Below are positions 9,762-62,263 of a stretch of 64,000 nt of DNA, one piece after another; position 1 is the stretch's first letter; the number at the start of each line of letters is the position of its first letter. Both the position numbers and the translations under genes were made by a program. The stretch comes from Schaalia suimastitidis DSM 15538 (lineage in GTDB: Bacteria; Actinomycetota; Actinomycetes; Actinomycetales; Actinomycetaceae), in assembly GCF_000429105.1 (NCBI RefSeq), contig NZ_KE386848.1, positions 432,434 through 496,433 of the forward strand, written 5' to 3'. Under the pieces are notes generated by a model. The model did no database searches, was not told where the DNA came from, and saw nothing but the letters and a program-made list of their open reading frames with translations.

Positions 9762-9945
9762 ACCTTCCCGCGACACCATCGAGTTCAAAACTTGACCTGC
9801 GTTGTCATTTCGGCCTAGTCCCGCCAGGGTGCTACCACAATCTCATCCACCAGTGGTCACTGCAGCAGCACACGCCAAACTTCGCAGTAACACACGATCA
9901 TGGCGGGCGCGCACGGTAACCCAAAGACGGCGGTGGCCTCGTCAA

Positions 9946-12429
9946 TTAGCCGAGGTAAGCAATAGCGAAACTTAATGGCGAACCGGAGCCGTCACGACGC
10001 GGATCTTCACCAGGTAGGGTCACCGGTGATCCATCAGCAGAGGCCGCCCTAGGGGAGCGGGCACCAACCCACGCAATATCAAGCCGGTCTTCACCTTTTA
10101 GGAAACGCTGGACGCGTACCCCCTGCGTGCCTCGACCCTTTTGCGGATACAGTGCGAACGGCGTGACCTTTACAGTGGTTTGACCAGTGCCCGGGAGAGC
10201 GCCCTCGGCCGCTGCCACAGTGACGACTGCCGCCTCGTCAATGGCATCAACGACCCAAAAACCGATGGCCTGAGCGCCAGGGGCAAGGTTGATACCTGCC
10301 ATACCACCTGCGGACCGTCCCTGCGGACGCACCTTTGCGGCCGGAGTACGCAGTAGTTGCGCATCGGAGGTAATAAAAACGAGTTCCGCATCGTCTTCGG
10401 CGGGAGCAAAACCAACGAGACTGTCGCCATCGTCCAACGCAATCACTTCCCAGTGGTCGCGTTGCAGTACATCGGCTTTGAGTCGCTTAACGACGCCCCG
10501 GGCTGTCCCCATTGCCATAATTGTCGCGGCTTGCGGATCTAAAAGCCCCACAGCAGGAGAATCACTGTGAATAAGCAACTGCGCTGGGGTGGCTGCAGCA
10601 AATGACAGTCCCGTTTCGAAACGCGGCAGTGCCGGCAAATCCACGACTTCGATACGGTGAGCCATACCGTCGGCGGTGACCACAGCAACCTGGGACCGAA
10701 CAGTGGAGGGCAACAGGGCTTTCCATCCGTCGTGAGCAGCACGCGGGCCCACCTCAAGAGGGTCTGCACCTTCGACGCGCGCTAAAGCACCGTGGGCACA
10801 CAGCACCACGGTGCAGGGTTCATCAGCAATTTCAAGCGCAAGGCCTTTGGTGCCACGTCCGGTTGCTGGCAGGGCAGCGGCCAGAGCGGCATCAGAAGAA
10901 CCTTGCGCTGCCACCGCTTCGGTGCCAGCGGCGGCAAGTAGCAGCGTGCGTCGAGGCGTGCCTAAACGGGTCGCAACATCACGTAACTCACCTGTGACCA
11001 TGTCATGAAGTAACGCTTGGGAGGCGAGGATTTCTTGTAGCTGAGCAATATTATTGGCAAGCTCATCACGCTCGGATTCGAGTTCGAGTCGCGAAAACTT
11101 CGTCAACCGTCTCAAACGGAGTTCAAGGATGTGGTTGGCTTGCAGCTCGGAAAGATCAAAAGCCGTTTGAAGGCGGGTGCGCGCAATATCAACGCTGTCA
11201 GAAGAACGAATAATGGCGATTACGTCGTCAATGTCGAGGACAGCAATGAGGAGGCCTTCAACCAGGTGCAGGCGGTCACTGTATTTGCCGAGGCGATATT
11301 CGCAGCGCCGACGTGTAACCGAGACGCGGTGGTCAAGGAATACGCGCAGCATATCTTTCAAACCCATTGTGCGCGGCTGGCCTTCGACCAGGGCAACGGC
11401 ATTAATTGAGAAGGAACCTTCTAACGGGGTGCGCTGGTAAAGCTGCTGAAGCACCGCTTCAGGGTTGAATCCGTTTTTGACTTCAATGACTAAGCGCAGT
11501 CCGTGAATTCGATCGGTGAGGTTTTGTACCGACGAAATACCTTTGAGTCTGCCTGCCGACACGTGTTCTTTAATTTTTTCGATCACTTTTTCGGGGCCAA
11601 CCATATAAGGCAATTCGGTAACGACCAGCCCCATCTTGCGTGCAGTGACACGCTCGGTTGTTACCTTCGCGCGGGTTCGAAAGGATCCTCTCCCCGTTTC
11701 GTATGCCTCTTTAATCCCGTCAAGGCCGACGATGACGCCGCCTTCGGGTAGGTCTGGGCCGGGGACAAAACGCATGAGGTCTTCAGTAGTGGCATCGGGG
11801 TGCGCCAGGAGGTGGCAAGCCGCAGCAATTGTCTCGGACAGGTTGTGGGGTGCGATATTGGTTGCCATCCCAACGGCGATACCGGAAGCGCCGTTGACTA
11901 ATAGCTGCGGGAATGCGGCGGGTAGTACCTCCGGTTGCATAAATTGGTTGTCGTAGTTGGGAACAAAATTGACGGTGTCCTCGTCCAAGCCACCAACAAG
12001 GTCCATCGCGGCAGGGGCCAGGCGTGCTTCTGTGTAGCGGGCAGCGGCCGGACCGTCATCAAGTGAGCCGAAATTTCCATGCCCGTCGATCAGCGGTACG
12101 CGTAGGTTAAAGGGCTGGGCGAGGCGGACTAGGGCGTCGTAAATTGCCGAGTCACCGTGTGGGTGGAGTTTGCCCATCACTTCGCCGACAACACGTTGGG
12201 ATTTCACGTGTCCTTTGTCGGGACGCAGGCCCATTTGATCCATTTGGAACAAAATGCGTCGTTGAACGGGTTTGAGGCCGTCGCGTGCATCTGGCAACGC
12301 ACGTGCGTGGATAACCGATACGGCGTATTCGAGGAAACTGGTGCGCATTTCGTCCGAGACGTCAATTTCCGAAATATTCTCATCGGTAGGAAGAGGTAAC
12401 GGCTGTTCTTTCATGCGCATGGTGTCCAT
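9946..12429 (-). CDS. parC: DNA topoisomerase IV subunit A (ParC)
   Basis: The 827-residue breakage-reunion subunit has the winged-helix region near the N-terminus with the quinolone-resistance segment GDSAIYDALVRLAQ (from residue 92; Ser94 and Asp98 keep the susceptible-type residues) and the catalytic tyrosine Tyr132 in AARYTEARL. The C-terminal half is a beta-pinwheel DNA-wrapping domain with a degenerate GyrA-box-like QKGRGTQGV. It faces parE across two acetyltransferase genes. No clear ribosome-binding sequence precedes the ATG at 12429; in-frame ATGs lie 3 and 5 codons further in. The stop codon is followed at once by one of the dispersed TTGACGAGGC decamers. Confidence 0.92.
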   Translation of the reverse strand: MDTMRMKEQPLPLPTDENISEIDVSDEMRTSFLEYAVSVIHARALPDARDGLKPVQRRILFQMDQMGLRPDKGHVKSQRVVGEVMGKLHPHGDSAIYDALVRLAQPFNLRVPLIDGHGNFGSLDDGPAAARYTEARLAPAAMDLVGGLDEDTVNFVPNYDNQFMQPEVLPAAFPQLLVNGASGIAVGMATNIAPHNLSETIAAACHLLAHPDATTEDLMRFVPGPDLPEGGVIVGLDGIKEAYETGRGSFRTRAKVTTERVTARKMGLVVTELPYMVGPEKVIEKIKEHVSAGRLKGISSVQNLTDRIHGLRLVIEVKNGFNPEAVLQQLYQRTPLEGSFSINAVALVEGQPRTMGLKDMLRVFLDHRVSVTRRRCEYRLGKYSDRLHLVEGLLIAVLDIDDVIAIIRSSDSVDIARTRLQTAFDLSELQANHILELRLRRLTKFSRLELESERDELANNIAQLQEILASQALLHDMVTGELRDVATRLGTPRRTLLLAAAGTEAVAAQGSSDAALAAALPATGRGTKGLALEIADEPCTVVLCAHGALARVEGADPLEVGPRAAHDGWKALLPSTVRSQVAVVTADGMAHRIEVVDLPALPRFETGLSFAAATPAQLLIHSDSPAVGLLDPQAATIMAMGTARGVVKRLKADVLQRDHWEVIALDDGDSLVGFAPAEDDAELVFITSDAQLLRTPAAKVRPQGRSAGGMAGINLAPGAQAIGFWVVDAIDEAAVVTVAAAEGALPGTGQTTVKVTPFALYPQKGRGTQGVRVQRFLKGEDRLDIAWVGARSPRAASADGSPVTLPGEDPRRDGSGSPLSFAIAYLG

Positions 12430-12490
12430 TTTGGTCAGGTATTGCCTGTCTACTTAGACTCCCACGCCGGTTAGGGGCACAATGTGAGTG

Positions 12491-13033
12491 ATGAGTATTA
12501 AAACTGATATTGAAAAGTGGGGGTTTTACCCTGCCATTGTGGAGCGGGCGTTGACCCGTGCCTTGGGTGGTGAGGAGCCTCGGGCATTGATCCATCAGAT
12601 CGATGCGGCATTTGATCATGGGTCAATGTTTCGCCATTTGACGCTTGCCGCGCTGGGCACTGACGTTTTTGTACATATCCATGTTGATGAGTTAGAAAAC
12701 GGTGGTGCCGGGGTTGCCACCGCTGTGCACCCGCTTGATGCACTCACCGGCTTGTCGGTGATGGAATACGTCGCCGGGCCGGAAAACGGTGGTAATCCCA
12801 GCGAGATCACCATCTCTTTGAACTTAGGCGGGACGAAACGCATGGAAATCCTACCTGGTGCCTGCGAGGACCCGGACTGCACGGCTGATCATGGGTGGCA
12901 AGGTCCGGTATTTCCTGATGATCTGACGATTCGCATTGCTGATGCTGCTGAAGGTAGCGGTGCAGTGGAGCGTGCACAGGTTTTCGTTGACGCGCTTTGT
13001 GCGGCTATCGCGCGGCGGCCTCACCGTGACTGA
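12491..13033 (+). CDS. DUF5998 family protein
   Basis: The product of about 180 residues is an actinobacterial protein of unknown function that sits beside topoisomerase IV genes in related genomes. It is soluble, with no signal peptide. It contains SMFRHLTLAALGTDVFVHIH near the middle and a C..DC.ADHGW cluster near residue 135. A GTG at 12488 is an equally possible start. The end overlaps the start of the following phosphodiesterase gene, so the two are translationally coupled. Confidence 0.82.
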   Translation: MSIKTDIEKWGFYPAIVERALTRALGGEEPRALIHQIDAAFDHGSMFRHLTLAALGTDVFVHIHVDELENGGAGVATAVHPLDALTGLSVMEYVAGPENGGNPSEITISLNLGGTKRMEILPGACEDPDCTADHGWQGPVFPDDLTIRIADAAEGSGAVERAQVFVDALCAAIARRPHRD

Positions 13034-14171: not shown

Positions 14172-14176
14172 GGGGC

Positions 14177-14207: not shown

Positions 14208-14211
14208 AAGA

Positions 14212-14247: not shown

Positions 14248-14258
14248 GGTGACAAGGT

Positions 14259-22420: not shown

Positions 22421-23724
22421 TGATGACGGATCCGAGTCTGGTGACGTTACGCGTCGACGATGTTGCGCACGGAGGGGCGTGCGTTGCTCGTCAAAGTGAT
22501 GGGCGCGTCGTTTTTGTGCGCCACACATTGCCTGGCGAGCACGTCGTCGCGCGGATTACCCGCACACGTAGTCGCCTTGCGTGGGCAGATGCCGTTGACA
22601 TACTTGAGGCCAGTGCTGACCGTGTGCCATCTGTGTGGCCTGAGGCCGGTCCTGGTGGGGTCGGCGGGGGAGAGCTTGCCCATGTGCGTCCTGCTGCCCA
22701 ACGTGCGTGGAAAGAACAAGTGATCCGTACGCAAATCCGTCGCATTGGTGGGCCACTTCTTGACGAGGCGGTTCGTGCAATTGGCGGCATCACTGTCCAA
22801 GCAGCACCGGGTGACGAGGATCCTGACGATACCTTGTGCGGGCGTCGCACCCGCATTGAGTTGGTGGCTAGTAACGAGGCGCGCCTGGGTATGCATGTGC
22901 ATCATGGCCATGATCTGCGTGTCCTTGAGCATATGCCGTTGGCGGTACCTGCTCTTCAAGACCTCAACGTTCTGGGCGCTGCCTCGCCGATATGGCATGG
23001 CGCGTGGGGGCCAGGGGAGCGCGTGCGATTGGTAGCACCTAATGGTGATGATCCACTTATTGTGACGCCGCGGGGCTTCTTCGACCGTTTTGGCGATGTT
23101 GATGATCGCGACGCATTGCGGTGGGATGTCACACTTGCCACGGGCGTGTTGCAGTACCAGGTGAGGCCGCAAGGTTTTTGGCAGACACACGTGGAAGGCG
23201 CATCTGTACTGGCCCGCGCTGTCGTCGAGGGCGCGCAATTGCGTGGTGGCGAGCAGGTGATGGAACTATACGCGGGTGCTGGCTTGTTTTCGCAGGCCCT
23301 GGCACACCACGCACTTGTGTCTGGGCTGAAGCAGGTGGCGATAGTGACGCTGGAAGGTGACGAGGCAGCTGTGGCTGATGCTGCTGCCAATTGTCGTGAC
23401 TTGCCTGGTGTTGACACGTGGGTGGGTGACGTTGATGCCCAGGGTGTGAAGGCGCTGGCCCGACAAGGTGAACGAATGCCTGACGTTGTGGTCCTTGATC
23501 CTCCTCGTTCAGGTGCGGGCAAAGATGTTGTGCGTGCTGTTGCTGCGAGTGGCGCGAAGAGGGTTGTCCTTGTTTCCTGCGATCCTGCGGCTGGGGCACG
23601 TGACTTAGCTGGTTTTGTGGGGTGTGGGTATCGTCTGGAAACCTTATGGGCGTGGGATCTGTTCCCGCATACGCATCACGTGGAGTCAGTGGCGGTGCTG
23701 ACACGCACATCAAGGAGTAGCTGA
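22417..23724 (+). CDS. TRAM-domain class I SAM RNA methyltransferase (TrmA/RlmCD-like)
   Basis: The 435-residue RNA uracil-5-methyltransferase-type enzyme has an N-terminal TRAM/OB domain (GGACVARQSDGRVVFV), a SAM-binding motif MELYAGAGLFSQAL near residue 283, and the catalytic region VVLDPPRSGAGKDV followed by VLVSCDPAA, whose Cys is the nucleophile. The 4Fe-4S cysteines of RlmD are not evident. The start is GTG 22417 or one of two ATGs just after it; all overlap the permease gene end. It is the Rv2689c position in mycobacteria. Confidence 0.88.
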   Translation: MMMTDPSLVTLRVDDVAHGGACVARQSDGRVVFVRHTLPGEHVVARITRTRSRLAWADAVDILEASADRVPSVWPEAGPGGVGGGELAHVRPAAQRAWKEQVIRTQIRRIGGPLLDEAVRAIGGITVQAAPGDEDPDDTLCGRRTRIELVASNEARLGMHVHHGHDLRVLEHMPLAVPALQDLNVLGAASPIWHGAWGPGERVRLVAPNGDDPLIVTPRGFFDRFGDVDDRDALRWDVTLATGVLQYQVRPQGFWQTHVEGASVLARAVVEGAQLRGGEQVMELYAGAGLFSQALAHHALVSGLKQVAIVTLEGDEAAVADAAANCRDLPGVDTWVGDVDAQGVKALARQGERMPDVVVLDPPRSGAGKDVVRAVAASGAKRVVLVSCDPAAGARDLAGFVGCGYRLETLWAWDLFPHTHHVESVAVLTRTSRSS

Positions 23725-32050: not shown

Positions 32051-32602
32051 TTAGACTCCTTCAAGGTGCAGGGAAGATTCCACACCAGCGCTACGTAGCA
32101 TCAGCATCGCCCATGCTTGCAGATGTTCACCAAGGTAGGGGGTATTGGGTGTCCATGATGCGCGCAATTCAACGTGGAGGGTTGCCCCTTTAAGGATGAG
32201 TCCGCCAAAGGATTCGGATATTTCTCGGGTGACGGTGCCCGTCATATCGTGGTAGCCAGCCCCCGCCTCGTCAAGACAGTCATGTGCCCATTGCCATAGC
32301 GCCTCCGACAGCAAAGGATCATGTCCCATATCGGAATCAATTTGTGAACGCATCTGAGCGACGATCCGAAAGCTTCCGTTCCATCCGGCTTGTCCTTCAG
32401 GATCGTGAAGTATTACCAAACGTCCAGCTGAACGTGGTTGTCCAAAGTCGTGTGCCCTCGTGCGAAGGCCAACAGCGGCAGTCCATGGTGCCATGCGTGT
32501 GGGCGACGGCAATTCCTCGTATTCGATACCAGGGTGAGTGGCGCCGTCACGTAGGGACGTTAACGAGGCGATGAAATCCTCTGGTGGTACTGCTTCACTC
32601 AC
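32051..32602 (-). CDS. DUF3000 family protein
   Basis: The 183-residue actinobacterial protein (Rv2680 family) is of unknown function and is almost always next to RNase D. It is soluble; typical segments include GRLVILHDPEGQAGWNG and GTVTREISESFGG. The GTG start at 32602 has a TAGGGT box ending 6 nt upstream and no convincing ribosome-binding sequence, so the rnd operon probably begins with a leaderless mRNA here. Confidence 0.9.
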   Translation of the reverse strand: MSEAVPPEDFIASLTSLRDGATHPGIEYEELPSPTRMAPWTAAVGLRTRAHDFGQPRSAGRLVILHDPEGQAGWNGSFRIVAQMRSQIDSDMGHDPLLSEALWQWAHDCLDEAGAGYHDMTGTVTREISESFGGLILKGATLHVELRASWTPNTPYLGEHLQAWAMLMLRSAGVESSLHLEGV

Positions 32603-36901: not shown

Positions 36902-38923
36902 GTGCCTAGTATCGACGTCCACATTGACGGCCAGCCTCAGTCCCTTGACCATGGCACAACTGGCACCACCGTCTATCAGGATCGTCGCGACGTGGTGGCC
37001 ATGTTCGTTGACGGTGAACCGTGGGATTTAGAACGGGTAATCCCCGCAGGCGCATCCGTTGAGGCCATCACCATTACCTCCGAGGCGGGACTGCAGATCC
37101 TGCGGCATTCCTGCACCCACGTGATGGCTCAGGCTGTGCAAGACATCTACCCCGACGTCAACCTTGGTATCGGCCCCTTTATTACCGACGGTTTCTACTA
37201 CGACTTCGGCAATATTGACGCTGTCACGCCAGAACTGATGCGCGAACTAGAAAAACGTATGAAGCGCATCATTAAAGAAGGACAAACCTTCCGACGTCGC
37301 ACAATTACCGACGAAGAAGCGCGCGTTGAGCTGGCCCAACAGCCCTACAAACTGGAACTTGTCACCACCAAGGGCGCTGGCGCCGACGGTGCCTCCGTTG
37401 AAGTCGGTGGCGGCGAACTCACCATGTATGACAATGTGCGCCGCGACGGTACCGTGGCCTGGACCGATCTGTGCCGCGGCCCCCACCTGCCAAATACCCG
37501 CCTGATTGGCAACGGCTTCGCCTTGACGAAATCTTCGTCAGCCTACTGGAAAGGCGACCAAGCCAACGACCCTCTACAGCGCATCTACGGCACTGCGTGG
37601 GCTTCGAAAGAAGACCTGGTGGCCTACCAGGAACGCATCAAGGAAGCAGAGCGACGTGACCACCGTCGCCTCGGCGCTGAACTTGATCTGTATTCGTTCC
37701 CCGAGGAACTGGGCGCGGGCCTGCCCGTCTTCCACCCTAAGGGTGGCGTCCTCAAGCGCGTCATGGAGGACTACGTGCGGGCCGCCCACATCGCCAACGG
37801 CTTCCAGTACGTTGGTACACCCCATATTTCCAAGGAAGATCTTTTCCATACCTCCGGGCACTTGCCATACTACGCCGACGGCATGTTCCCCCCGATGGAT
37901 GACGACGGGCAGCTCTACTACCTCAAGGCCATGAACTGCCCGATGCACAACCTTATCTTCCGTTCGCGTGGGCGTAGCTACCGCGAACTGCCTCTGCGCC
38001 TCTTCGAATTCGGCACCGTGTACCGCAACGAGAAGTCCGGTGTGCTCCAGGGGCTGACTCGCGTGCGGTCCATCACCCAGGATGACTCTCACAGCTATGT
38101 GATGCCCGAACAGGCTGCCGACGAAATCAAGCATCTGCTGAATTTTGTCCTTACCCTGCTGAAAGACTTTGGATTGACTGACTTCTACCTGGAACTGTCC
38201 ACCCGCGACAACGACGGTAAGAAGAAGGAAAAGTTCATCGGCTCGGACGAGCAGTGGGAACAGGCCACTGAAATCCTTCAGCGTTGCGCTGAAGAATCGG
38301 GACTGACCTGCGTACTTGATCCAGGTGGTGCGGCTTTCTACGGCCCGAAGATTTCGATTCAAGCCAAGGATGCTATTGGTCGCACCTGGCAAATGTCGAC
38401 CATCCAGTACGACTTTAACCAGCCGTCCCGATTCGGCCTGTCGTTCACTGCGCCCGATGGGAGCCATCAAGAGCCGGTGATGATTCACTCGGCAAAATTT
38501 GGGTCAATTGAGCGTTTCATTGGTGTCTTGGTGGAACACTACGCGGGTGCGTTCCCGGCGTGGCTTGCCCCTGAGCAGGTTCGTCTAGTGCCGGTGGCGG
38601 AAGCTTTCGACGACTACTGCAAGAGCGTTGCTGCCAAACTTGCTGCGCGTGGTATCCGCGCTGAGGTTGACCTGTCGGATGATCGTTTTGGCAAGAAGAT
38701 CCGTAACGCATCGAAAGATAAGGTGCCGTTCACGCTGATTGCTGGTGGGGAGGACGCCGAGGCGGGCGCGGTGTCGTTCCGTTTCCGTGACGGCAGCCAG
38801 CTCAATGGGATCGCCATTGACGAGGCGGTGGAGCGGATCGTTCGCCACGTTGAGGCTCGCTGTAACCACGATAAATTTGCCGACATGATTGATGTGTCGT
38901 CGGGTGAGGATACCGAAGCCTGA
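36902..38923 (+). CDS. thrS: Threonine-tRNA ligase
   Basis: The 673-residue class II aminoacyl-tRNA synthetase charges tRNA-Thr. An N-terminal TGS domain (1 to about 62) is followed by the editing domain with His69 and His73 (HSCTH) and CRGPH, the catalytic core with the zinc ligand Cys346 in KAMNCPMHN and motif 2 around [11 protein letters not shown], and a C-terminal anticodon-binding domain. The GTG start has an AGGAG ribosome-binding sequence 6 nt upstream. A TAGCAT box lies at 36857-36862. No T-box leader is seen. It heads a thrS-HIT-pgsA-prsW operon; thrS-HIT-pgsA is also the order in mycobacteria. Confidence 0.97.
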
Positions 38924-42943: not shown

Positions 42944-45900
42944 TCAGATCAGCACCTTTTTGCCCAGCGGCGTCGGATTACCGAAGCGGTGGTTGGTAAA
43001 TGACACAGCCTGCTCGTGAACAAAAGGCACCAGTTCCACGCGGCCACTCAAGGTCACTTCGCCACTCCACACTGCCACATCGGCAAGCCACTCGGTGGGT
43101 AGCGCCTGGGACAATGCCGTGAGTGAACCGCCAACAAGGCGGATACGCGCATCCAAACCTGAAGTGGGAGCCCACGCGGCCGCCCAAGCGTAGAACGCCT
43201 CGTCACTTTCGTGTACAACGGTGGCGCCAAGGCGAGCCAGCACCGCACGCGCAGTATCCGACAGGGAAGTGGGCGCTGACACGCGCAGTTGCGATCCAAG
43301 GGCCGTGGCAGCGCCAGCCAAAGCCAACACCTGCCATTCTGGCTCACCATCACTCAGACGCACGACCACTGGCAGCGGGAAGTAGCGCAACACGTTACGT
43401 TCTACACCCAAGCCAGACGGGTCGTGCCCGACACCGAACTCCGTGTCAATCGCATGCTGCGCAGAGGCGGCAAAAATACGCAGCAGGTCGCCGTCGGCAA
43501 TACTGTGCGACGCCTCGTCAATGATGCGCAGAGCTTCAGCAGACAGCGGCGCTGACGGTGCCAAAGTGGCATCAGTGCGCTTAAAAGTACCCAAGCCGAA
43601 GAGATACGAGGGGCCGCCTGCCTTCGTGCCAGCACCTACCGCTGAGCGTTTCCAACCGCCGAAAGGCTGGCGGCGGACAATGGCGCCGGTGATGCCGCGG
43701 TTCACGTAGACGTTACCGGCCTGCACGTGTTCAAGCCAGTAGTTGATTTCGTCGGCGTTAAGCGAATGAATACCCGCGGTGAGACCAAAATCGGTGGCGT
43801 TTTGCAGCTCAATGGCGTCTTCTAAGGTTTCGGCGGTCATCACCCCCAGAATGGGACCGAAATACTCTGTGAGGTGATATTCCGAGCCTGGTTTGACACC
43901 TGCACGCACACCGGGACTCCACAATTTGCCGCTCTGGTCCAACTGACGGGGCTTAATGGCCCACACTTCGCCCTCACCCAGCGTGGTCAAGCCACGCAGT
44001 AGCTTGCCTGAGGCGGGCTCAACTAACGGTCCCATCTGCGTTTTCAGTTCCCACGGCCACCCGACGTTGAGCGAGCGAACGCCATCGAGGAGCTGATTGC
44101 GGAAGCGTTTGGAACGCGCCACCGATCCCACCAAAATTACAGTTGAACAGGCCGAACACTTTTGACCGGCGTGACCAAAAGCAGAACTAATGACGTCTTT
44201 GGCTGCCAGGTCAAGGTCAGCGTGCGGCGTGATGATAATGGAGTCCTTGCCTGAGGTTTCCGCAAGAACCCCAAGGTCGGGACGCCACGATTTGAACATC
44301 TTTGCCGTCTCAATTGAGCCAGTAAGGATGACGCGATCCACCTTGGGGTGGCTGATGAGTTCCCTGCCCAGTTCGCGTTCGGACATGCTCACCAGTTGTA
44401 GGACGTCGCGCGGTACGCCAGCGTCCCACATGAGTTTGGCGACCATTGCACCTGTGCGTGCCGAGGCCGAAGCTGGTTTGAAGATGACGCCGGAGCCTGC
44501 CGCAAGGGCCGCGAGGATACCGCCTGCGGGGATCGCCATGGGGAAATTCCACGGCGGTGTGACAACGATGAGGCGGGAGGGCTGGTAGGTGGCGCCACCG
44601 AGGTTGTCTAGGGCCAAGGCTTGTTCGGCGTAGTAGTGCGCGAAGTCGGCTGCTTCAGAAACCTCAACGTCTCCCTGATCGAGGGCTTTACCTGCTTCTG
44701 ATCCGGCAACTTCAATGAGGAGCCCACGGTTCTTTGAAAACTCGATACCTACACGGTGGAGGATTTCGGCGCGCTCTGCTGCTGGGCGGTTTCCCCATGC
44801 TTCGGCGGCTTGGTATGTGGACTCGATAATGGTGCCCAGCTGCTCGGGGCTGGTGACTTTCGCGTGGTCAATAATGTCACGGCCAAGTGTCGAGTCTTTC
44901 ATGCGCCCCGCAATTTCGCGTGCCCATTGGAGGTTTGCAGGTAGGGACGGGTCAGAGTCGGGCGTATTGTTGAAATTCCAGTTGCCGTCCGCGTCAGTGA
45001 CGAAGGCGCGGATGTCGTCGTGTGTTTCCTCAAGGCGGTTTTGGGTGCGGTTGGGTCCAACCGGGTCGGTGAAGGCGTGGCTGACGGCAGCAAGGAAACG
45101 TCCTTCTTCACGGGCCAAGAGTTCTTCAGAGTCCGCGATGTCAAATATGGATGACATGAAGTTGGCTGGGAGCGCATTTTCTTCGAGGCGCCGCACCAGG
45201 TAGGCGATGGCGACGTCGAATTCTTCGGGGTTGACGACTGGCACGTAGTACAGGAGGTGGCCGACGTCTTCTTGCATGGCTTGGGCTTGCGGGGAGGCCA
45301 TGCCGCTGAGCATTTCGAATTCCACGTCGGTGCCCACGTTAAGGCCGCGTTCTTTTGCCAGTTCGTAGGCGAAGGCTGCGGTGAAAAGGTTCATACCTGC
45401 CACGCCAATATTGACGTTGGCAATATGGTCGCGCTGTAGGGCGTATTCGAGGACTCGAATGTAGTTGGCGTCGGTGTGTTCTTTGGTGGGTTCTGTGGCG
45501 AGCGGCCAGCCTTTGGTGGTGGCTGCGACGCGTTCCATGGAGAGGTTGGCGCCTTTGACGACGCGGACCTTGATGGGTGCACCACCTCGGGCAACGCGCG
45601 CTGCAGCCCATGCTTGGAGGTCTTCCATTGCTGGCATGGCGTCAGGCAGGTAGGCCTGTAAGACGATACCGGCACGCAGGTTGAGGAATTCTGGGCGGTC
45701 CAGAATTGTTTTGAAAACGTCGATGGTGAGGTGGAGGTCGTGGTATTCCTCCATGTCGAGATTAATAAATTTCTTTGGCGTGTAGGAGTTGGCGCGTTCG
45801 TACAGTGGCAGTAGTGCGCTGACCGCGTGTGCGACCGCATCATCGTATGCCCACGGGTTGTGGGGGCCGATGACGGCGGAAACTTTCATTGACACGTAGT

Positions 45901-46510: not shown

Positions 46511-48076
46511 CTACGAGCGTAGACGCGGTTTGCCGTCGACGTCGATAAGTGGCTCAGCTAAGGCGTGTACTTGGGCGAATTCTGCTTCGATGGCCTCGTT
46601 ATTGGCGGAGACTAGTCGCACTGCGCGGTCGAATTCGGCGTCAATTTCTGTGTCTTTTTGGTAGGTGGCAGCTGAAACGACGATGGCGACCAGTAGTGCT
46701 GCGAGGAAGCCGGGGAGTATTTCGTACAGTCCGAACCACTTGTAGGTGCCCCACACGCCGACGGTGACGGCACCGGCAGTCATACCGGCAAGGGCGCCTT
46801 GCCAGGTGAGGCGACGCCAGTACAGGGCCAGGATGACGATGGGGCCAAAAGCGGCGCCGAATCCTGCCCATGCGAAGGCGACCAAGTTGAGGATAGAGTC
46901 GGTGCGGAACCAGGCGAAGATGGCTGCGAGTACTGAGACTGCGAGGACGGCGATGCGTCCAAGGGTGATTGACGAGGCGGTGTCGCGTCGGTGTTTGCCG
47001 GTGGCGTTGACGATGTCTTCAACGACGGCTGAGGAGGTGACGAGTAGTTGGGAGGAAATAGTGGACATGATGGCGGCGAGGATGGCGGCCAACATGAATC
47101 CTGCGATGAATGTGGGGAAGAGTGCTTGGCCTGAGAGGATGAAGACAGATTCGTGTTGTCCTTCGGCGACGTTGATGATTCCGGCGTGGTGGAGTGCGAC
47201 GGCGACCAGGGCTGTGCCGCCTGCGCCGATAATGGATAGGAGCATCCAGCCAATGCCGATGCGGCGTGCTTGTTTGGCTTCGGCGGGGCTGCGTAGTGCC
47301 ATGTAGCGCACGATAATGTGGGGTTGTCCGAAGTAGCCAAGGCCCCATGCGAGTGCCGAGATAATGCCGATGGTGGTGCCGCCGCTGATGGGGGAGAGGA
47401 GCATGGGGTTGGTGGCGAGGATACCGTCGGTGACTTTATCAAGTCCTCCCAGGGCGATTATGCCTGCGATAGGCACTGTGACCAGTGCAAAGAGCATCAT
47501 GAGGCCTTGGACGACGTCGGTCCAGGATACGGCGAGGAATCCGCCGATAAGGGTGTAGAGGATGACGACGCCTGCGACAAGGACCATGCCAAGGTGGTAG
47601 TTCATGCCGAAGGCTGATTCGAAGAAGGTGCCGCCTGCGACCATGCCGGAGGACACGTAGAAGGTGAAGAATACGAAGATGATGATGCCGGCGGCAATGC
47701 GCACGTAGTGCTTTTTGTCGTGGAGTCGGTTGCCCAGGAAGGAGGGGACGGTGATGGCGTTGCCGGCGACTTGAGTGTAGGAACGTAGGCGTGCGGCGAC
47801 CAGTTTCCAGCTTGCCCATGAGCCGATGGTGAGGCCCACTGCAATCCACCCTTCGACGATGCCGCTGATGTAGAGGGCGCCGGGTAGGCCCATGAGGAGC
47901 CAGCCTGACATATCTGAGGCACCTGCTGATAAGGCAGCGACTCCTGGGCTGAGGTTTCGGCCGCCAAGCATATAGTCGTCAAGGTTCTTTGTGCGGGTAT
48001 ATGCCCAGATACCAATGATGATCATTGCAACGAAGTAAATAATCATTGCCATTGCTTGGCCCGTGATCGCTGACAT
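46511..48076 (-). CDS. putP: Sodium/proline symporter
   Basis: The 521-residue SSS-family transporter has about thirteen transmembrane segments and the PutP signature GASDMSGWLLMGLPGA near residue 55. It imports proline with Na+ for PutA. The start is the ATG at 48076 with GGGAAA upstream; the frame is open to 48109. It is the first gene of a putP-putA unit. Its promoter carries a TATAGT -10 box overlapped by the same near-palindrome found at acnA. The C-terminal tail of about 50 residues is cytoplasmic and acidic. Confidence 0.95.
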   Translation of the reverse strand: MSAITGQAMAMIIYFVAMIIIGIWAYTRTKNLDDYMLGGRNLSPGVAALSAGASDMSGWLLMGLPGALYISGIVEGWIAVGLTIGSWASWKLVAARLRSYTQVAGNAITVPSFLGNRLHDKKHYVRIAAGIIIFVFFTFYVSSGMVAGGTFFESAFGMNYHLGMVLVAGVVILYTLIGGFLAVSWTDVVQGLMMLFALVTVPIAGIIALGGLDKVTDGILATNPMLLSPISGGTTIGIISALAWGLGYFGQPHIIVRYMALRSPAEAKQARRIGIGWMLLSIIGAGGTALVAVALHHAGIINVAEGQHESVFILSGQALFPTFIAGFMLAAILAAIMSTISSQLLVTSSAVVEDIVNATGKHRRDTASSITLGRIAVLAVSVLAAIFAWFRTDSILNLVAFAWAGFGAAFGPIVILALYWRRLTWQGALAGMTAGAVTVGVWGTYKWFGLYEILPGFLAALLVAIVVSAATYQKDTEIDAEFDRAVRLVSANNEAIEAEFAQVHALAEPLIDVDGKPRLRS

Positions 48077-48362: not shown

Positions 48363-48372
48363 TTGACGAGGC
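48363..48372 (+). repeat. Dispersed decamer TTGACGAGGC (one of 13 in the window)
   Basis: This is an intergenic copy upstream of hsdM. The others are at 9936, 10232, 22760, 32275, 34972, 38817, 43512, 46969, 56982, 57228, 58800 and 61853 (start positions, either strand). Five read as (Ile/Leu)-Asp-Glu-Ala, five lie in an antisense Ala-Ser-Ser frame, three are intergenic. Confidence 0.7.
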
Positions 48373-55542: not shown

Positions 55543-57192
55543 TCATCCTTTCGCGACGTACACTAGTGGATCTACGCTAGTAGGATGAACGACCAACACC
55601 TTTGGTGCTTTGATTTCGACGTGGTGAGCGTCGGTAAATTTCTGTATCTGCTCGCCGTTACTCAAGTCAAAGATACCTTCGGCCGTAATAATCGCGCTTT
55701 CATCGGCAGTGAGTTCGCCCGCATACGATGCGCACCCATAACTGGAGTCAAATGACAGTCTTTCTTGGCCCTTCAGTTCCACACCCTTGACTTCCAAAAT
55801 CTCGCAGTCGGAACCCTTTGCTTCTTGAATCGCGCCAGCCCACGAGGCGTCACCATCCTGTAGCCACTTGCGGTACTGATCAATGGTGAACATATTGCCA
55901 ACATTAAGGGGCAAGACTGCCTGTGACTTTGCAAGGTCAAGGTTAGTCATGCGTTCGACCTCAACACCGTCTTTGTTGATCCACGCGACGTTGGCGGCGC
56001 CATTTTCGCTGCCTTCGAGGAAGATTCCCCAGCCATCTTTGGCACCCATCCATGCGGCTTCGGTCAGTTGATCAGGCAATGACACCTTCGCCATCGTCCC
56101 AGTGGCAAGATTAAGGACGCCGTGGACTGAACGGTCAGAATCGGTGACGAGCACATACGACACACCGTCAATCTGCATTGGTCCTTCCAGGCGGTACTCT
56201 TGCGCATCAATGTCGAGCGTCCACTGCGGTTCGGTATCGTCAGGGGATGCCCATCCTTGGAAGCCGTTCTCAAAGGTTGTTACCACGGCCATATCTGCAG
56301 CAACGAAAACAGAAATAGCATCGCGATACGGCCACGGCGCCAGAACTTCGTCACCTGTTTTGACGTCAAATAAGAATTCCGGTGCGGTGACGAAACCATG
56401 CCAAATGCCAAGGCTGGCGTAATACATGTCTTCTGTCGCACGGCTCCAATTCTGAACGGGTTCGCCATCAACGACACTGTAGGACTCCACCCACCGCTCA
56501 TCGTTCTTGTGTCCGAGGAGAACGAAATCATCCCCCTGAGCCGCAATCTGCAGGATATCAATGTCAGTATCGACCAGCGTCGCACCGTTTTTCCATTGCG
56601 GACTGGGTTCAATGACAAAGGGGTCTGCCTGCGCCTTACTGCCACCAAATTTCATCCACACGCCAACAATGGCAGCAACCACCACCAAAGCGACAACAAC
56701 GACGGTGGCGATAATTGCGATAAGCGCGCCGTTCCGTTTACGCTGTGGGGCTGCAAGAGGTACGTGCGATGTCCCAAAGCTGCCAGGGGCAGAAACACCT
56801 TGGCCAGTTCCGTACGGCGCACCACCTGGGGGCGCAGAGGTTCCATAAGGCGATCCCGCTGGCACACCGGTCACCTGAGGCGCAGGCCCATTGGAAGCGG
56901 GCACCGCCTGTGCTGTGGGCGCTGGCCCATAAGGGGCAGGCACAGCTTGAGATGCGGGCGCAGCTTGCTGGTGTTCGCCCATTGACGAGGCGCGTGCCGC
57001 CAAAGCAGATTGAGTGGCAGGATGCGGGCTGCCAGATAGCCAATTGAGCAACGCCGGTGATGCTAAAGGATGCGCTGCAATCAGCGGGTGAAGGTCGGTT
57101 CGACGAAAAGCAATCGCTTCAAGAACCTGTGGTGGTGTTGTAGGGTTCGCGGCCTGTTGGACGTCAGCGTCAAAGGGCGGGTTCTGTGCCAT
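55543..57192 (-). CDS. Membrane protein with variant leucine-rich-repeat-like head and extracellular domain (copy 1)
   Basis: From the ATG at 57192 the protein has 549 residues. Residues 1 to about 60 resemble the variant leucine-rich repeat (helix-turn) type (ANPTTPPQVLEAIAFRRTDL, then LIAAHPLASPALLNWLSG). A Pro/Ala/Gly-rich linker follows, then one transmembrane segment near 165-190 and a large exposed domain of about 350 residues with repeated short beta-rich stretches, possibly propeller-like. The head would lie inside and the C-terminus outside. The frame is open to 57354, but TATGCT 6 nt before the ATG supports this start. It is paralogous to the next gene. Function unknown. Confidence 0.78.
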   Translation of the reverse strand: MAQNPPFDADVQQAANPTTPPQVLEAIAFRRTDLHPLIAAHPLASPALLNWLSGSPHPATQSALAARASSMGEHQQAAPASQAVPAPYGPAPTAQAVPASNGPAPQVTGVPAGSPYGTSAPPGGAPYGTGQGVSAPGSFGTSHVPLAAPQRKRNGALIAIIATVVVVALVVVAAIVGVWMKFGGSKAQADPFVIEPSPQWKNGATLVDTDIDILQIAAQGDDFVLLGHKNDERWVESYSVVDGEPVQNWSRATEDMYYASLGIWHGFVTAPEFLFDVKTGDEVLAPWPYRDAISVFVAADMAVVTTFENGFQGWASPDDTEPQWTLDIDAQEYRLEGPMQIDGVSYVLVTDSDRSVHGVLNLATGTMAKVSLPDQLTEAAWMGAKDGWGIFLEGSENGAANVAWINKDGVEVERMTNLDLAKSQAVLPLNVGNMFTIDQYRKWLQDGDASWAGAIQEAKGSDCEILEVKGVELKGQERLSFDSSYGCASYAGELTADESAIITAEGIFDLSNGEQIQKFTDAHHVEIKAPKVLVVHPTSVDPLVYVAKG

Positions 57193-57198
57193 GCGCCT

Positions 57199-57204: not shown

Positions 57205-57286
57205 GACGACACCGAAGAGGCAGCCCAGCCTCGTCAAGGTACGAGAACACCACTGCGAGACAGAATCCGCGCACAATAAGGCACAA

Positions 57287-57429: not shown

Positions 57430-59154
57430 CTATTTCGCTGGCACGTACACCTTGTACATTCCGTCTTCAACCTCAACGACCAGAGCCTTACTTGACTTCA
57501 TGTCGGCATAGTACGCTTCTGCTCCATAGTCGTCGATGCGGGCACCGGTCTTGGCGTCGAAAATACCGTAGGAGCCAATGAGCGTCGCGTGGTCCTCAGT
57601 CAGATAGAAAAATGGTGAGTCGCACGACACGTCAAATTCGTCGATGTCGAGTTTGACGCCATCAACTGTGATCTCATCGCAGGACTCACTCACAGTTGAG
57701 GTCGCATCAGCAAAGGACGTGTCGCCATTTTCAATCCATGCTTTGGCCTCAGTAAAGTTCACGAAGCCGTGCGTCAACAGTGGCATCGACGTGAATATTG
57801 CCTCCGTGTCAACGTTTTCTGAACGATCGAACTCTTTACCTGACTGGTCAACCCACACGATCGTGGTGCCGGAGCTGTCATCTTCCAAAGCAATGCCAAA
57901 AGCGTCGGTGACGGCAAAATTGAAATCCAGCACCGTTGGTTCGTCAATGTCGATCTGCGAAGCCTCCCCGTTGGACAGGTTAACAATCATCTCCTGGGTG
58001 CTATTTTCACTACTGATCAACGTCGCATGGGTGACGCCATCGAAGTTGGCGACCATACCCACATACAAATCATCGTTGTTATCGTCGACGCTCCATGCTG
58101 CAGTGGAAGCGTCGACACTGTTCCACCCTTGGATGCCTTCCTCGTAGGTGTTGACAACGACAACGCCTCCGTAAATATAAAGGTCTTCAGCATCCGTCTG
58201 TGCCCACGGCGCTGGTGCACCGTCACCTGTTTGTAGATCGAAGAGGGTAGAGTTCACCACCAGGCGGTCCTGCCAAAAACCGGCTCCATAGCCGTTGTAA
58301 TCATCCAGTTCAGCAGTCCACCGTACATTTGCACCGCCATCAGCTATTTCGTACAGAGTCACGGTCGCTGGTGTCGGTTCATAATCAATCAGTGCCACCA
58401 GATTATCCGAGGCCGCCACAAGGGAAGATGTGTTGACAGAACCGATTTCGGTGCCGCCAGCACTCCACTCATTGACAGGTGTCACTGCTGTGAACGAAGC
58501 GTCAGAACCACCGACAGAAAAGCTGCCCCGCAACAGCATCCACAGACCTGTGGCGATAAGAGCAACAACCAGGAACGCCGCAACACTAAGCGTCACAATA
58601 ACTGGAGTCGAGATGCTACGTTTGCTACCCGGTGTGCCCGCGCTTGCGTCCCCATAGGTGCTGACAGGCGTGGTCGGCTGACCAGATGCCGCAGAAGTAA
58701 ACGAAGCTGGGAAGCCTGCGGCTGGGTTCTGCCCAGGTGCGAACGGCGCTGGTTGGGCGGGTGAGTTCTGCCCAGGTACGAAAGGCGCCGGTTGGGCACT
58801 TGACGAGGCGGCCTCGGCAATGTGCGTTGGTATTGCATCAGCCGGGGCTGGGGCGGCGGTGGGCGGCTCAGGTACGGGCACGTCGCCAGGCTGAGCAGCG
58901 GAAGGGAGGGACGCCTCGGCAGGCACGCCGGAAGGTATTGCGGTAGGCGCAGTGCGGGCGGCAAGGGCGGCTTGTACGTGCGGGTCCCGGCTTTGAGATA
59001 GCCACTGAAGAAGCTGAACGGGCGCCGCGGGATGGGCCGCAATCACTGCATGAAGATCCGGGCGAGCAAATGCGATCTGCTCCAATTCAGCGGGCGGTGT
59101 CGTGGGATTGTGAACAGCCGCCACATGGGAATCAAAAGGTCCTTGTGTTGACAT
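57430..59154 (-). CDS. Membrane protein with variant leucine-rich-repeat-like head and extracellular domain (copy 2)
   Basis: The 574-residue paralogue of the preceding entry has the same order: an N-terminal head (HNPTTPPAELEQIAFARPDL then VIAAHPAAPVQLLQWLSQS), a Pro/Ala-rich linker with FAPGQN/FVPGQN repeats, one transmembrane segment near 185-210, and an acidic extracellular domain of about 360 residues. Identity is highest in the head. Double hairpins and a separate promoter lie between the two genes, so they are transcribed independently. It is divergent from the metal ABC operon. An envelope sensor or binding role is possible but unsupported. Confidence 0.78.
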   Translation of the reverse strand: MSTQGPFDSHVAAVHNPTTPPAELEQIAFARPDLHAVIAAHPAAPVQLLQWLSQSRDPHVQAALAARTAPTAIPSGVPAEASLPSAAQPGDVPVPEPPTAAPAPADAIPTHIAEAASSSAQPAPFVPGQNSPAQPAPFAPGQNPAAGFPASFTSAASGQPTTPVSTYGDASAGTPGSKRSISTPVIVTLSVAAFLVVALIATGLWMLLRGSFSVGGSDASFTAVTPVNEWSAGGTEIGSVNTSSLVAASDNLVALIDYEPTPATVTLYEIADGGANVRWTAELDDYNGYGAGFWQDRLVVNSTLFDLQTGDGAPAPWAQTDAEDLYIYGGVVVVNTYEEGIQGWNSVDASTAAWSVDDNNDDLYVGMVANFDGVTHATLISSENSTQEMIVNLSNGEASQIDIDEPTVLDFNFAVTDAFGIALEDDSSGTTIVWVDQSGKEFDRSENVDTEAIFTSMPLLTHGFVNFTEAKAWIENGDTSFADATSTVSESCDEITVDGVKLDIDEFDVSCDSPFFYLTEDHATLIGSYGIFDAKTGARIDDYGAEAYYADMKSSKALVVEVEDGMYKVYVPAK

Positions 59155-59292: not shown

Positions 59293-59366
59293 CCGGTGCC
59301 TCGCAGGCTCATATCGCTGGGAATAATCGCCCATCTGGTCGCATGCGAGGCACCGGATGGGCGATT
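59293..59366 (+). promoter_or_regulatory. Interleaved two-helix element in the leader of the metal ABC operon
   Basis: Two perfect complementary pairs interleave: 59293-59305 with 59344-59356 (13 bp) and 59325-59334 with 59357-59366 (10 bp), in the order A-B-A'-B'. If transcribed they could form a pseudoknot or two alternative hairpins. The element ends 72 nt before the start of the transporter operon. Confidence 0.55.
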
Positions 59367-59438
59367 TGCGCGGTAACCACGTCATAGTGTCTAATTGTTA
59401 CTGCGAACGATTCCCATTAGCTAGAAGAGGCTTGTGTC

Positions 59439-61061: not shown

Positions 61062-62263
61062 AAGACCAGTTAATGTCCACCCGCCCACGCCTTTACACTC
61101 GTAGCCGCACCCTCCTCCTTGTCATGGCCTTGATCGCAAGCCTAAATATCTGCTTTGTGTTGTCGGCAATGGCTCAGGATGACCTCACACAAACAGTCAC
61201 CTCCGATGAAGCCAGCGACGATGCCTCCACCGTCATTAGCCGTGGCCACGTTGACCTTGGGCCACGTATCGTCGATGGGCAGTGGATGGTGCGGGCACGC
61301 GACGACTCTGGCCAAAAGCCCGTATGGCGCGCACCAGCAAATACTGTGCTTCACGTCACCGATGCTGCGCTGATGGATGCTCCAACCGACGACATGTACA
61401 ACTTTATGGGCGCAAGCGCAGGCCAACGCTGGTACGTCGTTCCCCAAACAGAAAATCCTCAGGCAGTGTGGCTCGGGTGGAATACCCAAGATCCAGCGGT
61501 CACCCAGACCGTTGACCGCGGTGTCACCATGCGTATCGGTCCCATCATGGGACCAGGAAAATCTTGGCTATTCCTACAAAACGGTACCTTTGGAGAACCG
61601 CTACTCCTGGTTGACGGACAAGTTCCCCAACCTCAAGATGTCTGGGTAGATGTCAACACCCACGTCCATGCCAACTGGGTCTTTACCGAACCCGGTATCT
61701 ACCTGGCACGCGTGGAATTTAGCGCCACAACACGCGATGGTGCAACACTCAGCGACCACACGGTACTGCGTTTCGCGGTGGGGGATAGCACCAGTACAGA
61801 CGAGGCCCTCGTCGCCGACACGTCACCGCTGCTGACTGCCGAGGCTGGAAACGCCTCGTCAATAGATGGCGCATCCAGCGATAGCAGCGCAACCGACGCA
61901 ACAAATCCCGCAGCCCAAGCCTCACCGGCGCTTGGCGAGCCGAAGAACAGCCTCCCCACCACGGCCCTGTGGATCGCCATCGGCGTCGCCATCATTGCTG
62001 GTGTCGCCCTGGTCTTTGTATGGCAACGCAACAAGCGTATTAGCGCTGAACGCGAATATGCACAGCAGGAGGCCAAAGCATGGGCCACCGAGTCACGCAC
62101 CGCAATTGCGACAAAGAGAGATTCGGTAAGTGCACGCAAGGAAATATCAGACACGCAAGACCCAAACGCGCGCAAGTCAAGCGCAACGGCTGCTGCGGGC
62201 GAGTGTGAACCGGGAACGGCAGACGCAAACACGCGCCAATCGGAGACCGCAACCGATGAGTGA
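61058..62263 (+). CDS. Surface-anchored repeat protein of the metal ABC operon
   Basis: The 401-residue protein has a signal peptide (cleavage likely after AMA near residue 34) and an exterior domain opening RGHVDLGPRIVDGQW and containing NWVFTEPGIYLARVEF. A low-complexity Ala/Ser linker, one transmembrane segment near 305-325 (ALWIAIGVAIIAGVALVFVW) and a charged cytoplasmic tail complete it. Proteins of this choice-of-anchor type accompany this transporter class. It may capture metal or a metal-bearing ligand outside the cell and hand it to the lipoprotein; that is inference. The ATG overlaps the previous stop. Confidence 0.83.
   Translation: MKDQLMSTRPRLYTRSRTLLLVMALIASLNICFVLSAMAQDDLTQTVTSDEASDDASTVISRGHVDLGPRIVDGQWMVRARDDSGQKPVWRAPANTVLHVTDAALMDAPTDDMYNFMGASAGQRWYVVPQTENPQAVWLGWNTQDPAVTQTVDRGVTMRIGPIMGPGKSWLFLQNGTFGEPLLLVDGQVPQPQDVWVDVNTHVHANWVFTEPGIYLARVEFSATTRDGATLSDHTVLRFAVGDSTSTDEALVADTSPLLTAEAGNASSIDGASSDSSATDATNPAAQASPALGEPKNSLPTTALWIAIGVAIIAGVALVFVWQRNKRISAEREYAQQEAKAWATESRTAIATKRDSVSARKEISDTQDPNARKSSATAAAGECEPGTADANTRQSETATDE

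What the first reader, a model, noticed from the sequence alone, without database searches (positions are those of the whole stretch)
9936..61862. Decamer TTGACGAGGC occurs 13 times in 64 kb, on both strands and in several frames
Exact copies start at 9936(-), 10232(-), 22760(+), 32275(-), 34972(-), 38817(+), 43512(-), 46969(+), 48363(+), 56982(+), 57228(-), 58800(+) and 61853(-). With equal base use a given 10-mer is expected about 0.12 times here (128,000/1,048,576). Most copies extend to A/C-TTGACGAGGCG. Five encode (I/L)-D-E-A in frame, five are antisense in Ala-Ser-Ser frames, and three are intergenic, one directly after the parC stop codon, so protein constraint alone does not explain them. 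No strand bias is seen. It could be a DNA-uptake-like, Chi-like or chromosome-organising word.
Basis: partly seen in the sequence, partly recalled or inferred. Interest (0 to 1): 0.7.

Follow-up and report, generated by a model that had tools for sequence, protein, structure and literature searches.

The report
DNA-uptake-like genome word in Schaalia
A ten-letter DNA word is scattered hundreds of times through this Schaalia-like bacterium's genome, and relatives carry variant spellings of it (up to about 1,400 copies of one of them), which is the pattern left by self-recognition tags for taking up DNA, a feature best documented in two Gram-negative families.

Summary
TTGACGAGGC occurs 13 times in the window (expected 0.17) and 247 times in the 2.29 Mb genome, against 4 for the reversed word. 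It is not a protein or codon effect: in 37% of the genome, 83 copies lie in genes (codon-shuffle mean 7.6-8.0) and 20 between genes (expected 0.28). Copies are strand-neutral, which argues against a Chi- or KOPS-like word. Single-mismatch forms are in excess. Congeners carry a one-base-longer variant that is at background here: 1,377, 778 and 654 copies of ACGAGGGCGG in three genomes (controls 13-31). In the richest genome it forms close inverted pairs and clusters at gene ends. This genome encodes ComEA, ComEC, DprA and two Tad-type loci, the equipment used for transformation by the actinobacterium Micrococcus luteus. Best explanation: an independently evolved set of DNA uptake sequences with lineage dialects in Actinomycetaceae (about 0.6). 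Uptake bias and a receptor are inferred, not shown. Against it: ComEC and T2SSE ATPases are near-universal in the family and do not discriminate (the three richest relatives were not tested for them), one congener with both shows no clear word, the gene-end signs are weak here, and some GC-rich relatives' counts are codon-driven.

The parts
9936..9945 (-). TTGACGAGGC copy, intergenic, directly 3' of the stop of the topoisomerase subunit A (parC/gyrA-type) gene
   Evidence: 0 of 10 relatives have TTG[ACT]CGAGGC or ACGAGGGCG within 60 bases after the same stop
10232..10241 (-). TTGACGAGGC copy, sense, encodes IDEA inside the topoisomerase gene 9946-12429(-); 0 of 10 relatives have IDEA there (L039 has PDEA, with GACGAGGC in its DNA)
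22760..22769 (+). TTGACGAGGC copy, sense, in 22420-23724 (RlmD/RumA-like methyltransferase, below the NCBIfam cut-off)
32265..32274 (-).
34972..34981 (-). TTGACGAGGC copy, antisense, in 34762-36075(+)
38817..38826 (+). TTGACGAGGC copy, sense, in thrS 36902-38923(+)
43512..43521 (-). TTGACGAGGC copy, sense, in putA-like gene 42944-46420(-) (below the NCBIfam cut-off)
46969..46978 (+). TTGACGAGGC copy, antisense, in putP 46511-48076(-)
48363..48372 (+). TTGACGAGGC copy, intergenic, between divergent genes
56982..56991 (+). TTGACGAGGC copy, antisense, in 55543-57192(-)
57228..57237 (-). TTGACGAGGC copy, intergenic, about 35 bases upstream of the predicted start of 55543-57192(-)
58800..58809 (+). 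TTGACGAGGC copy, antisense, in 57430-59124(-); first arm of an inverted pair
58811..58820 (-). TTGCCGAGGC, the commonest one-mismatch variant, second arm of the inverted pair with 58800-58809
61853..61862 (-). TTGACGAGGC copy, antisense, in 61058-62263(+)

Best explanation
The word is a DNA-uptake-sequence-like tag. A competent cell's pilus or surface DNA receptor binds DNA that carries ATTGMCGAGGCGG-type words better than DNA without them, imports it through ComEA and ComEC, and recombines it. Over many generations uptake bias (molecular drive) lets chance near-matches gain further matching letters, so the word accumulates on both strands, in permissive reading frames and between genes, surrounded by an excess of one-mismatch forms. 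When the receptor's preference changes, a lineage drifts to a new spelling: here ATTGACGAGG-CGG, in relatives ATTnACGAGGGCGGGGC or GACGAGGGCG. Shown: overrepresentation, strand neutrality, one-mismatch excess, dialects, and competence and Tad-type genes in this genome. Inferred: natural competence, biased uptake, the receptor (most likely a minor pilin or tip protein of a Tad/Flp pilus) and the drive.
For: 247 copies genome-wide against 4 for the reversed word; with up to one mismatch 1,304 against 141. In the sample, 52 sense and 31 antisense copies in genes against 6.7 and 1.35 under codon shuffling (200 shuffles; summed 7.6 in 30 shuffles), and 20 intergenic against 0.28. Excess over the mean of 40 letter-shuffled words falls with mismatch load: 43x, 6.6x, 1.9x, 1.4x, 1.1x, 1.0x; only loads 0 and 1 exceed the highest control word. 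PMC1939737 (passages) reports a steady decline with mismatch load for H. influenzae and N. gonorrhoeae uptake sequences and not for its controls. No strand bias. Dialects in the genus: ACGAGGGCGG 1,377 in G015 (control 13), 778 in G014 (31), 654 in G018 (20), but 2 here (4); in G015 54 coding against 2.3 and 31 intergenic against 0.19. G015's flanks show the same 5' ATT. In G015, 8 inverted (two share a copy) against 2 direct close pairs, about 1 of each expected; 11 of 28 intergenic copies lie between convergent genes, 2.9 expected; 14 of 28 lie within 30 bp of a stop, 3.1 expected. ComEA, ComEC, DprA and two Tad-type ATPase loci in this genome. M. luteus transforms with ComEA/ComEC and Flp pili and lacks the comG cluster (passages of PMC6370729). 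A one-base-insertion dialect is known in Neisseria (wadDUS; passages of PMC3630211). One orientation is commoner in reading frames (52 against 31), as the abstract of PMC2346458 reports for uptake sequences.
Against: No uptake or transformation data, and no receptor identified. ComEC is found in 150 of 151 family genomes and T2SSE in 151 of 151, 150 above the cut-off, so presence does not track the word; G032 (same genus) has both but no clear word in 100 kb (16 copies against 5 genome-wide). The three genomes richest in the variant (G014, G015, G018) were not in that set of 151, and no ComEA, ComEC or TadA homologue was found in the small parts of them that I hold, so their machinery is unshown. 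In this genome intergenic enrichment is borderline (20 of 103 against 12.7% of bases, P 0.05), intergenic copies show no convergent-gene bias, close inverted pairs are few (3 against 0.9 expected) and there is no gene-terminus bias. G014 shows no convergent-gene bias either (2 against 3.2). Spacing is no more even than random. Exact-word density (1 per 9.3 kb) is far below the 2,245-5,918 copies per genome quoted for Neisseriaceae dialects in the passages of PMC3630211. Variant counts in some GC-rich relatives are codon-driven: G113 17 against 20.6 and G006 9 against 8.3. Outside the genus 4 of 23 genomes also reach three times the reversed control for TTGACGAGGC, at low counts (9-22).
Confidence: 0.6

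Rival explanations
1. A chromosome-organising or nucleoid-protein binding word: a DNA-binding protein needs many dispersed, unoriented sites, and selection keeps them; related species have drifted binding specificities.
For: Dispersed, strand-neutral, lineage-specific, in and between genes. In this genome the gene-end signs that would favour uptake sequences are weak. No binding protein was searched for.
Against: In G015 the variant clusters after stop codons and in inverted pairs, which such a role does not predict. The wide range of counts among congeners (6 to 247 for TTGACGAGGC; 2 to 1,377 for ACGAGGGCGG) is less expected for an essential organising site.
Confidence: 0.17
2. A methylation or mismatch-repair product, like cyanobacterial HIP1: a methyltransferase-linked repair bias creates and maintains the word without selection on it.
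For: HIP1 and alternate HIPs are likewise abundant, replace one another between lineages and track methyltransferases (abstract of PMC4390886).
Against: The word is not palindromic, and the two dialects differ by a one-base insertion. Methyltransferases were not tested.
Confidence: 0.1
3. Chi-like or FtsK-orienting (KOPS) word.
For: A short overrepresented non-palindromic word.
Against: No strand bias: 133/114; 56 of 103 on the G-rich strand of its stretch, P 0.43; 689/688 in G015; 35/34 in total over 7 stretches of the G014 chromosome.
Confidence: 0.03
4. A by-product of peptide and codon usage (I/L-D-E-A).
For: 52 of 103 sampled copies are in that one frame; DEA is commoner than amino-acid frequencies predict (217 against 98).
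Against: Codon shuffling that keeps every protein gives 6.7 sense and 1.35 antisense against 52 and 31; 20 copies lie between genes; at the topoisomerase IDEA site 0 of 10 relatives have IDEA.
Confidence: 0.02
5. A short dispersed mobile or REP-like repeat.
For: Some inverted pairs in G015.
Against: 83 of 103 copies are inside genes here, and similarity fades beyond about 12-13 bases.
Confidence: 0.03

Closest known systems
DNA uptake sequences (DUS) of Neisseriaceae and their dialects
   Same: 10-12-mer (length recalled), thousands of copies, lineage dialects with a shared core, one of which differs by a single-base insertion (passages of PMC3630211); shown to direct uptake of kin DNA there.
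   Different: The word is unrelated to GCCGTCTGAA (as printed in the passages of PMC6370729). The host is an actinobacterium with Tad-type pilus ATPases; no ComP-like receptor is known here and uptake is untested.
Uptake signal sequences (USS) of Pasteurellaceae
   Same: Overrepresentation falling with mismatch load (passages of PMC1939737); one orientation favoured in reading frames, hundreds to thousands of copies (abstract of PMC2346458).
   Different: Different word (recalled). The bias towards gene termini reported in that abstract is not seen.
Natural competence of Micrococcus luteus (ComEA, ComEC, Flp/Tad pili)
   Same: Same gene set in an actinobacterium (passages of PMC6370729).
   Different: No uptake word was mentioned for M. 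luteus in the passages read.
HIP1 palindromes of cyanobacteria
   Same: Abundant genome-wide short word, replaced by alternatives in some lineages (abstract of PMC4390886).
   Different: HIP1 is palindromic and tied to methyltransferases; this word is not palindromic and methylation is untested.

Membership tests
DUS/USS class (uptake-enhancing words) | Hundreds to thousands of copies far above expectation | tested here: met
   247 against 4; 1,377 against 13 in G015 for its variant
DUS/USS class (uptake-enhancing words) | Not explained by codons or protein; present between genes | tested here: met
   83 against 7.6 and 20 against 0.28 here; 54 against 2.3 and 31 against 0.19 in G015. Not met for the variant in G113, G006, G032, G147
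DUS/USS class (uptake-enhancing words) | No strand bias | tested here: met
DUS/USS class (uptake-enhancing words) | Overrepresentation declines with mismatch load | tested here: met
   declines here and in G014, but here only loads 0 and 1 exceed the highest of 40 control words; G015's 10-mer falls to background at load 2. Of two relatives without the word, G032 is at background and G147 has a mild one-mismatch excess (21 against 9.5, control maximum 19)
DUS/USS class (uptake-enhancing words) | Lineage dialects with a shared core | tested here: met
   congruence with a tree not tested
DUS/USS class (uptake-enhancing words) | Inverted pairs at gene ends (feature recalled) | tested here: inconclusive
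   Seen in G015; weak here
DUS/USS class (uptake-enhancing words) | Competence machinery in the genome | tested here: met
   ComEA (Pfam domains; NCBIfam comE below cut-off), ComEC, DprA, TadA x2 (second below the NCBIfam cut-off), TadE-like; near-universal in the family, so not discriminating; not tested genome-wide in G014, G015, G018
DUS/USS class (uptake-enhancing words) | Word-dependent DNA uptake or transformation | not testable with these tools
   needs a bench assay
DUS/USS class (uptake-enhancing words) | Dedicated receptor such as ComP | not tested
   no receptor search was made
Neisseriaceae DUS proper | Shares the DUS word or its CTG core | tested here: not met
   TTGACGAGGC and its reverse complement contain no CTG; core as stated in PMC3630211
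Chi / KOPS | Orientation bias along the replichore | tested here: not met
   orientation judged from GC skew of stretches, not from a mapped origin
HIP1 | Palindromic word | tested here: not met
   TTGACGAGGC is not its own reverse complement (direct from the sequence)
HIP1 | Matching DNA methyltransferase | not tested
   no methyltransferase search was made
REP/BIME repeats (definition recalled) | Intergenic, palindromic, tens of bases shared | tested here: not met
   83 of 103 copies in genes; flanks little conserved beyond about 12-13 bases

The most novel reading that the evidence does not exclude
Actinomycetaceae evolved, independently of Neisseriaceae and Pasteurellaceae, a self-recognition code for DNA uptake that works through a Tad/Flp pilus. 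It has at least two dialects within one genus (TTGACGAGGC and ACGAGGGCGG), and perhaps a third built on ACGACGnCG in other genera, so that oral and animal actinobacteria are kept apart, or allowed to mix, by the spelling of a 10-17-letter word.
Probability: 0.5. Interest if true: 0.88.

Novelty: new variant of a known kind. Interest (0 to 1): 0.75.

Why it matters
If true, self-specific DNA uptake is not confined to the Gram-negative families where it is best documented, and it can arise with a different pilus. The dialects would predict which commensal actinobacteria exchange genes, would let competence be inferred from sequence alone in species not shown to transform, and would give a word to add to DNA for genetic work in hard-to-handle oral actinobacteria, some of which host Saccharibacteria epibionts (S. 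odontolytica is grown with N. lyticus TM7x; passages of PMC10633639). An independent origin would also let the molecular-drive theory of uptake sequences be tested.

Tried and rejected
Chi/KOPS reading: rejected on strand neutrality. Codon or peptide reading: rejected for this genome and G015, but it can explain a family-wide excess of GACGAGGGCG over the reversed word: in G113 (418 against 19 there) codon shuffling of ACGAGGGCG gives 20.6 for 17 seen in genes and 0 between genes, so alone is not evidence of dialects. Presence/absence correlation with ComEC or a pilus ATPase: no discrimination. Even spacing: not found. Copy-poor regions as mobile DNA: the two pieces of 41 without any TTG[ACT]CGAGGC are a glycosyl-hydrolase/transporter stretch (L121) and a small contig with rhamnan/ABC-export genes (L150); suggestive, not tested further. 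Gene-terminus bias: absent. Third dialect ACGACGnCG: strong in genes in G107 and G099 against codon shuffling but nearly absent between genes; left open. The extended 13-mer ACGAGGGCGGGGC has 40 copies in 151 kb of G015 (reversed 0) and 0-7 per genome (controls 0-5) in 198 order genomes, G015 not among them. Inverted pairs in this genome: 3 against 0.9 expected, too few. Competence homologues in held parts of G014, G015, G018, G017: none found by tblastn, but only small parts are held. Literature: searches (uptake sequence, natural competence or transformation with Actinomyces, Actinobacteria, Schaalia, Actinomycetaceae or Micrococcus luteus; the words themselves) showed, in the listings that I saw, no report of an uptake word in Actinobacteria. 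Listings were capped (13: 15 of 25; 31: 30 of 101; 32: 12 of 46; 48: 12 of 196; 59: 10 of 643; 70: 10 of 158; 12, 23 and 58 complete), and the library lacks most subscription journals and all bioRxiv preprints. A lookup of Maughan et al. 2010 failed. The script stopped on an error after printing its first table; redid the rest.
Full report
WHAT WAS CHECKED. The window is G000:C1:432434-496433 of a 2,294,128-base genome in 11 contigs. The nearest named relatives by its topoisomerase subunit A protein are Schaalia and Actinomyces records at 76-80% identity (S. cardiffensis, Actinomyces sp. S6-Spd3, S. georgiae, S. canis and others; records very near the window's own genome may have been left out of that search). 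TTGACGAGGC occurs 13 times in the window against 0.17 expected. In the genome there are 133 forward and 114 reverse copies against 3 and 1 for the reversed word, and 1,304 against 141 when up to one mismatch is allowed.

NOT PROTEIN, NOT CODONS. I took 40 stretches placed by position and not by hits, which with the window make 860,173 bases, and predicted genes with a simple script of my own (706 genes, 87% coding). Of 103 exact copies, 52 are sense, all in the frame nTT GAC GAG GCn; 31 are antisense, in three phases (20, 9, 2); 20 are intergenic. Two hundred synonymous shuffles that keep every protein gave means of 6.7 sense and 1.35 antisense. Intergenic copies number 20 against 0.28 from an order-1 model of the intergenic DNA. 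At the topoisomerase IDEA site 0 of 10 relatives have IDEA; one, L039, has PDEA with GACGAGGC in its DNA. None of the 10 has TTG[ACT]CGAGGC or ACGAGGGCG in the 60 bases after the stop. The sites turn over, and the motif appears to have shaped the protein there, not the reverse (inference).

WHAT THE MOTIF LOOKS LIKE. The commonest variants are TTGCCGAGGC (71), TTGTCGAGGC (33), GTGACGAGGC (33) and TCGACGAGGC (31) against 103 exact; positions 5-10 are tighter than 1-4. Intergenic and antisense copies favour A before and G after the word, giving ATTG(A/C)CGAGGCGG. Excess over the mean of 40 shuffled words falls with mismatch load: 43x, 6.6x, 1.9x, 1.4x, 1.1x, 1.0x; from load 2 on, some control words are as common. 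The passages that I read of PMC1939737 report a steady decline for H. influenzae and N. gonorrhoeae uptake sequences and not for controls.

STRAND. Forward/reverse counts are 133/114 (P 0.25). In the sample 56 of 103 copies lie on the G-rich strand of their stretch (P 0.43); orientation was judged from GC skew, not from a mapped origin. In relatives the counts of the variant are 689/688, 382/396 and 317/337, and seven stretches along the G014 chromosome give 35/34 in total. This argues against Chi and KOPS.

DIALECTS. Of 34 same-genus genomes, 29 have at least three times as many TTGACGAGGC as reversed words (a control that codon usage can inflate); of the 23 others (one same family, 22 same order) 4 do, with 9-22 copies, and all 23 have 1-22 copies with controls of 1-47. 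Among 20 genomes reached through named loci a Flaviflexus MAG also has 36 against 3. Low-count congeners carry a longer word. ACGAGGGCGG occurs 1,377 times in G015 (control 13), 778 in G014 (31), 654 in G018 (20), 172 in G002 (14) and 2 times here (4). In G015 (151,114 bases) ACGAGGGCG is 54 in genes against 2.3 under codon shuffling and 31 intergenic against 0.19; G014 52 against 18.4 and 15 against 0.71; G018 13 against 4.2 and 8 against 0.36; G033 23 against 9.9 and 8 against 0.46; G016 24 against 9.9 and 4 against 0.33, where ACGAGGTCG and ACGAGGACG are also in excess in genes. G002 shows both words in excess in genes. Intergenic G015 copies read ATTnACGAGGGCGGGGC with a T-rich stretch a few bases further. 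Aligned to the window's ATTGACGAGG-CGG, the two differ by one inserted G and in how far the 3' end is fixed. PMC3630211 (passages) describes wadDUS, a Neisseria dialect that differs from the standard one by an inserted T. Genomes without a clear word in the sample include G032, G006, G113 and G147. In G107 and G099 ACGACGnCG is in excess in genes but hardly between genes; I leave it as a hint.

A WARNING ON COUNTS. The family-wide table of GACGAGGGCG in 151 genomes shows large excesses over the reversed word in GC-rich genomes, but in G113, one of the largest (418 against 19), codon shuffling accounts for all that the sample holds (17 seen in genes, 20.6 expected, 0 between genes). Only genomes tested with codon shuffling or intergenic counts should be called dialect carriers.

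GENE ENDS AND PAIRS. In G015, 8 inverted pairs (two share a copy) against 2 direct pairs lie within 80 bases, about 1 expected of each; 11 of 28 intergenic copies lie between convergent genes against 2.9 expected (P 6e-5), and 14 of 28 within 30 bases of a stop against 3.1 expected. Inverted uptake sequences acting as terminators are known in Neisseria and Haemophilus (recalled). G014 has 4 inverted against 1 direct pair (0.6 expected) but no convergent-gene bias. In this genome the same signs are weak, though the window holds one pair at 58800-58820 and one copy directly after a stop codon.

MACHINERY. The genome has comEA (SLBB plus HHH domains), comEC and a DNA polymerase III delta-like gene side by side (C1 about 125667-129373), DprA, and two T2SSE ATPases above the Pfam cut-off, both best matched by the TadA model in NCBIfam (one above and one below its cut-off), each beside a T2SSF-type gene, one also with DUF4244 and TadE-like genes. 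Two weaker T2SSE hits fall below the cut-off. M. luteus, another actinobacterium, has comEA and comEC but no comG cluster and needs Flp pili for transformation (passages of PMC6370729). ComEC is found in 150 of 151 and T2SSE in 151 of 151 family genomes, so these genes are permissive, not diagnostic. G014, G015 and G018 were not among those 151 and the parts of them that I hold show none of ComEA, ComEC or TadA.

JUDGEMENT. The pattern (abundance, strand neutrality, presence in and between genes, one-mismatch excess, lineage spellings with a shared core, gene-end pairs where density is highest, competence and pilus genes here) fits uptake sequences better than any rival that I could name, but the defining act, biased uptake, cannot be tested here. 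It works like a DUS; it is not a member of the Neisseriaceae DUS (no CTG core). I put 0.6 on uptake sequences and 0.17 on a chromosome-organising site; a methylation-driven word is next at 0.1. If the reading holds, it would be an independent origin in Gram-positive bacteria; my searches of the held papers showed no earlier report (searches and their caps are listed under Tried and rejected).

Noticed in passing
L227-L231 (G099), L232-L236 (G107), L188-L189 (G035): ACGACGnCG words are in excess in three genera (codon-shuffle tested in G107 and G099 only), possibly a third dialect or a codon-pair effect; nearly absent between genes in G107 and G099.
   Followed up: partly
G014 sample, L166-L174: A second repeated string around AACAGAGCGGACTTCG (16-26 copies in 145 kb), unrelated to the word, nature unknown.
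   Followed up: no
G033 sample, L180-L184: A string around GCGACCACTCGGCG is repeated about 13-17 times in the sample.
   Followed up: no
L188-L189 (G035) and the G017 sample (L190-L191, L211-L214): Strings repeated about 85 and 47 times in the samples, likely CRISPR arrays or long tandem repeats (guess, not tested).
   Followed up: no
L114:6903-8267: ComEC here matches only the membrane Competence domain in Pfam; no lactamase-type domain was matched. Open-frame lengths around the listed ComEC hits range widely across the family (344 to 1,620 aa).
   Followed up: no
L039, L040: Records named Trueperella pyogenes and Xylanimonas cellulosilytica sit with Schaalia by the topoisomerase protein (79%), probably mislabelled.
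   Followed up: no
L150 (G000:C10): 16 kb contig of 48% GC with rhamnan synthesis and ABC export genes and no TTG[ACT]CGAGGC; perhaps a variable surface-polysaccharide locus.
   Followed up: partly
window:32826-33254: Cluster of five tRNA genes (Gly, Val, Gly, Cys, Val).
   Followed up: no
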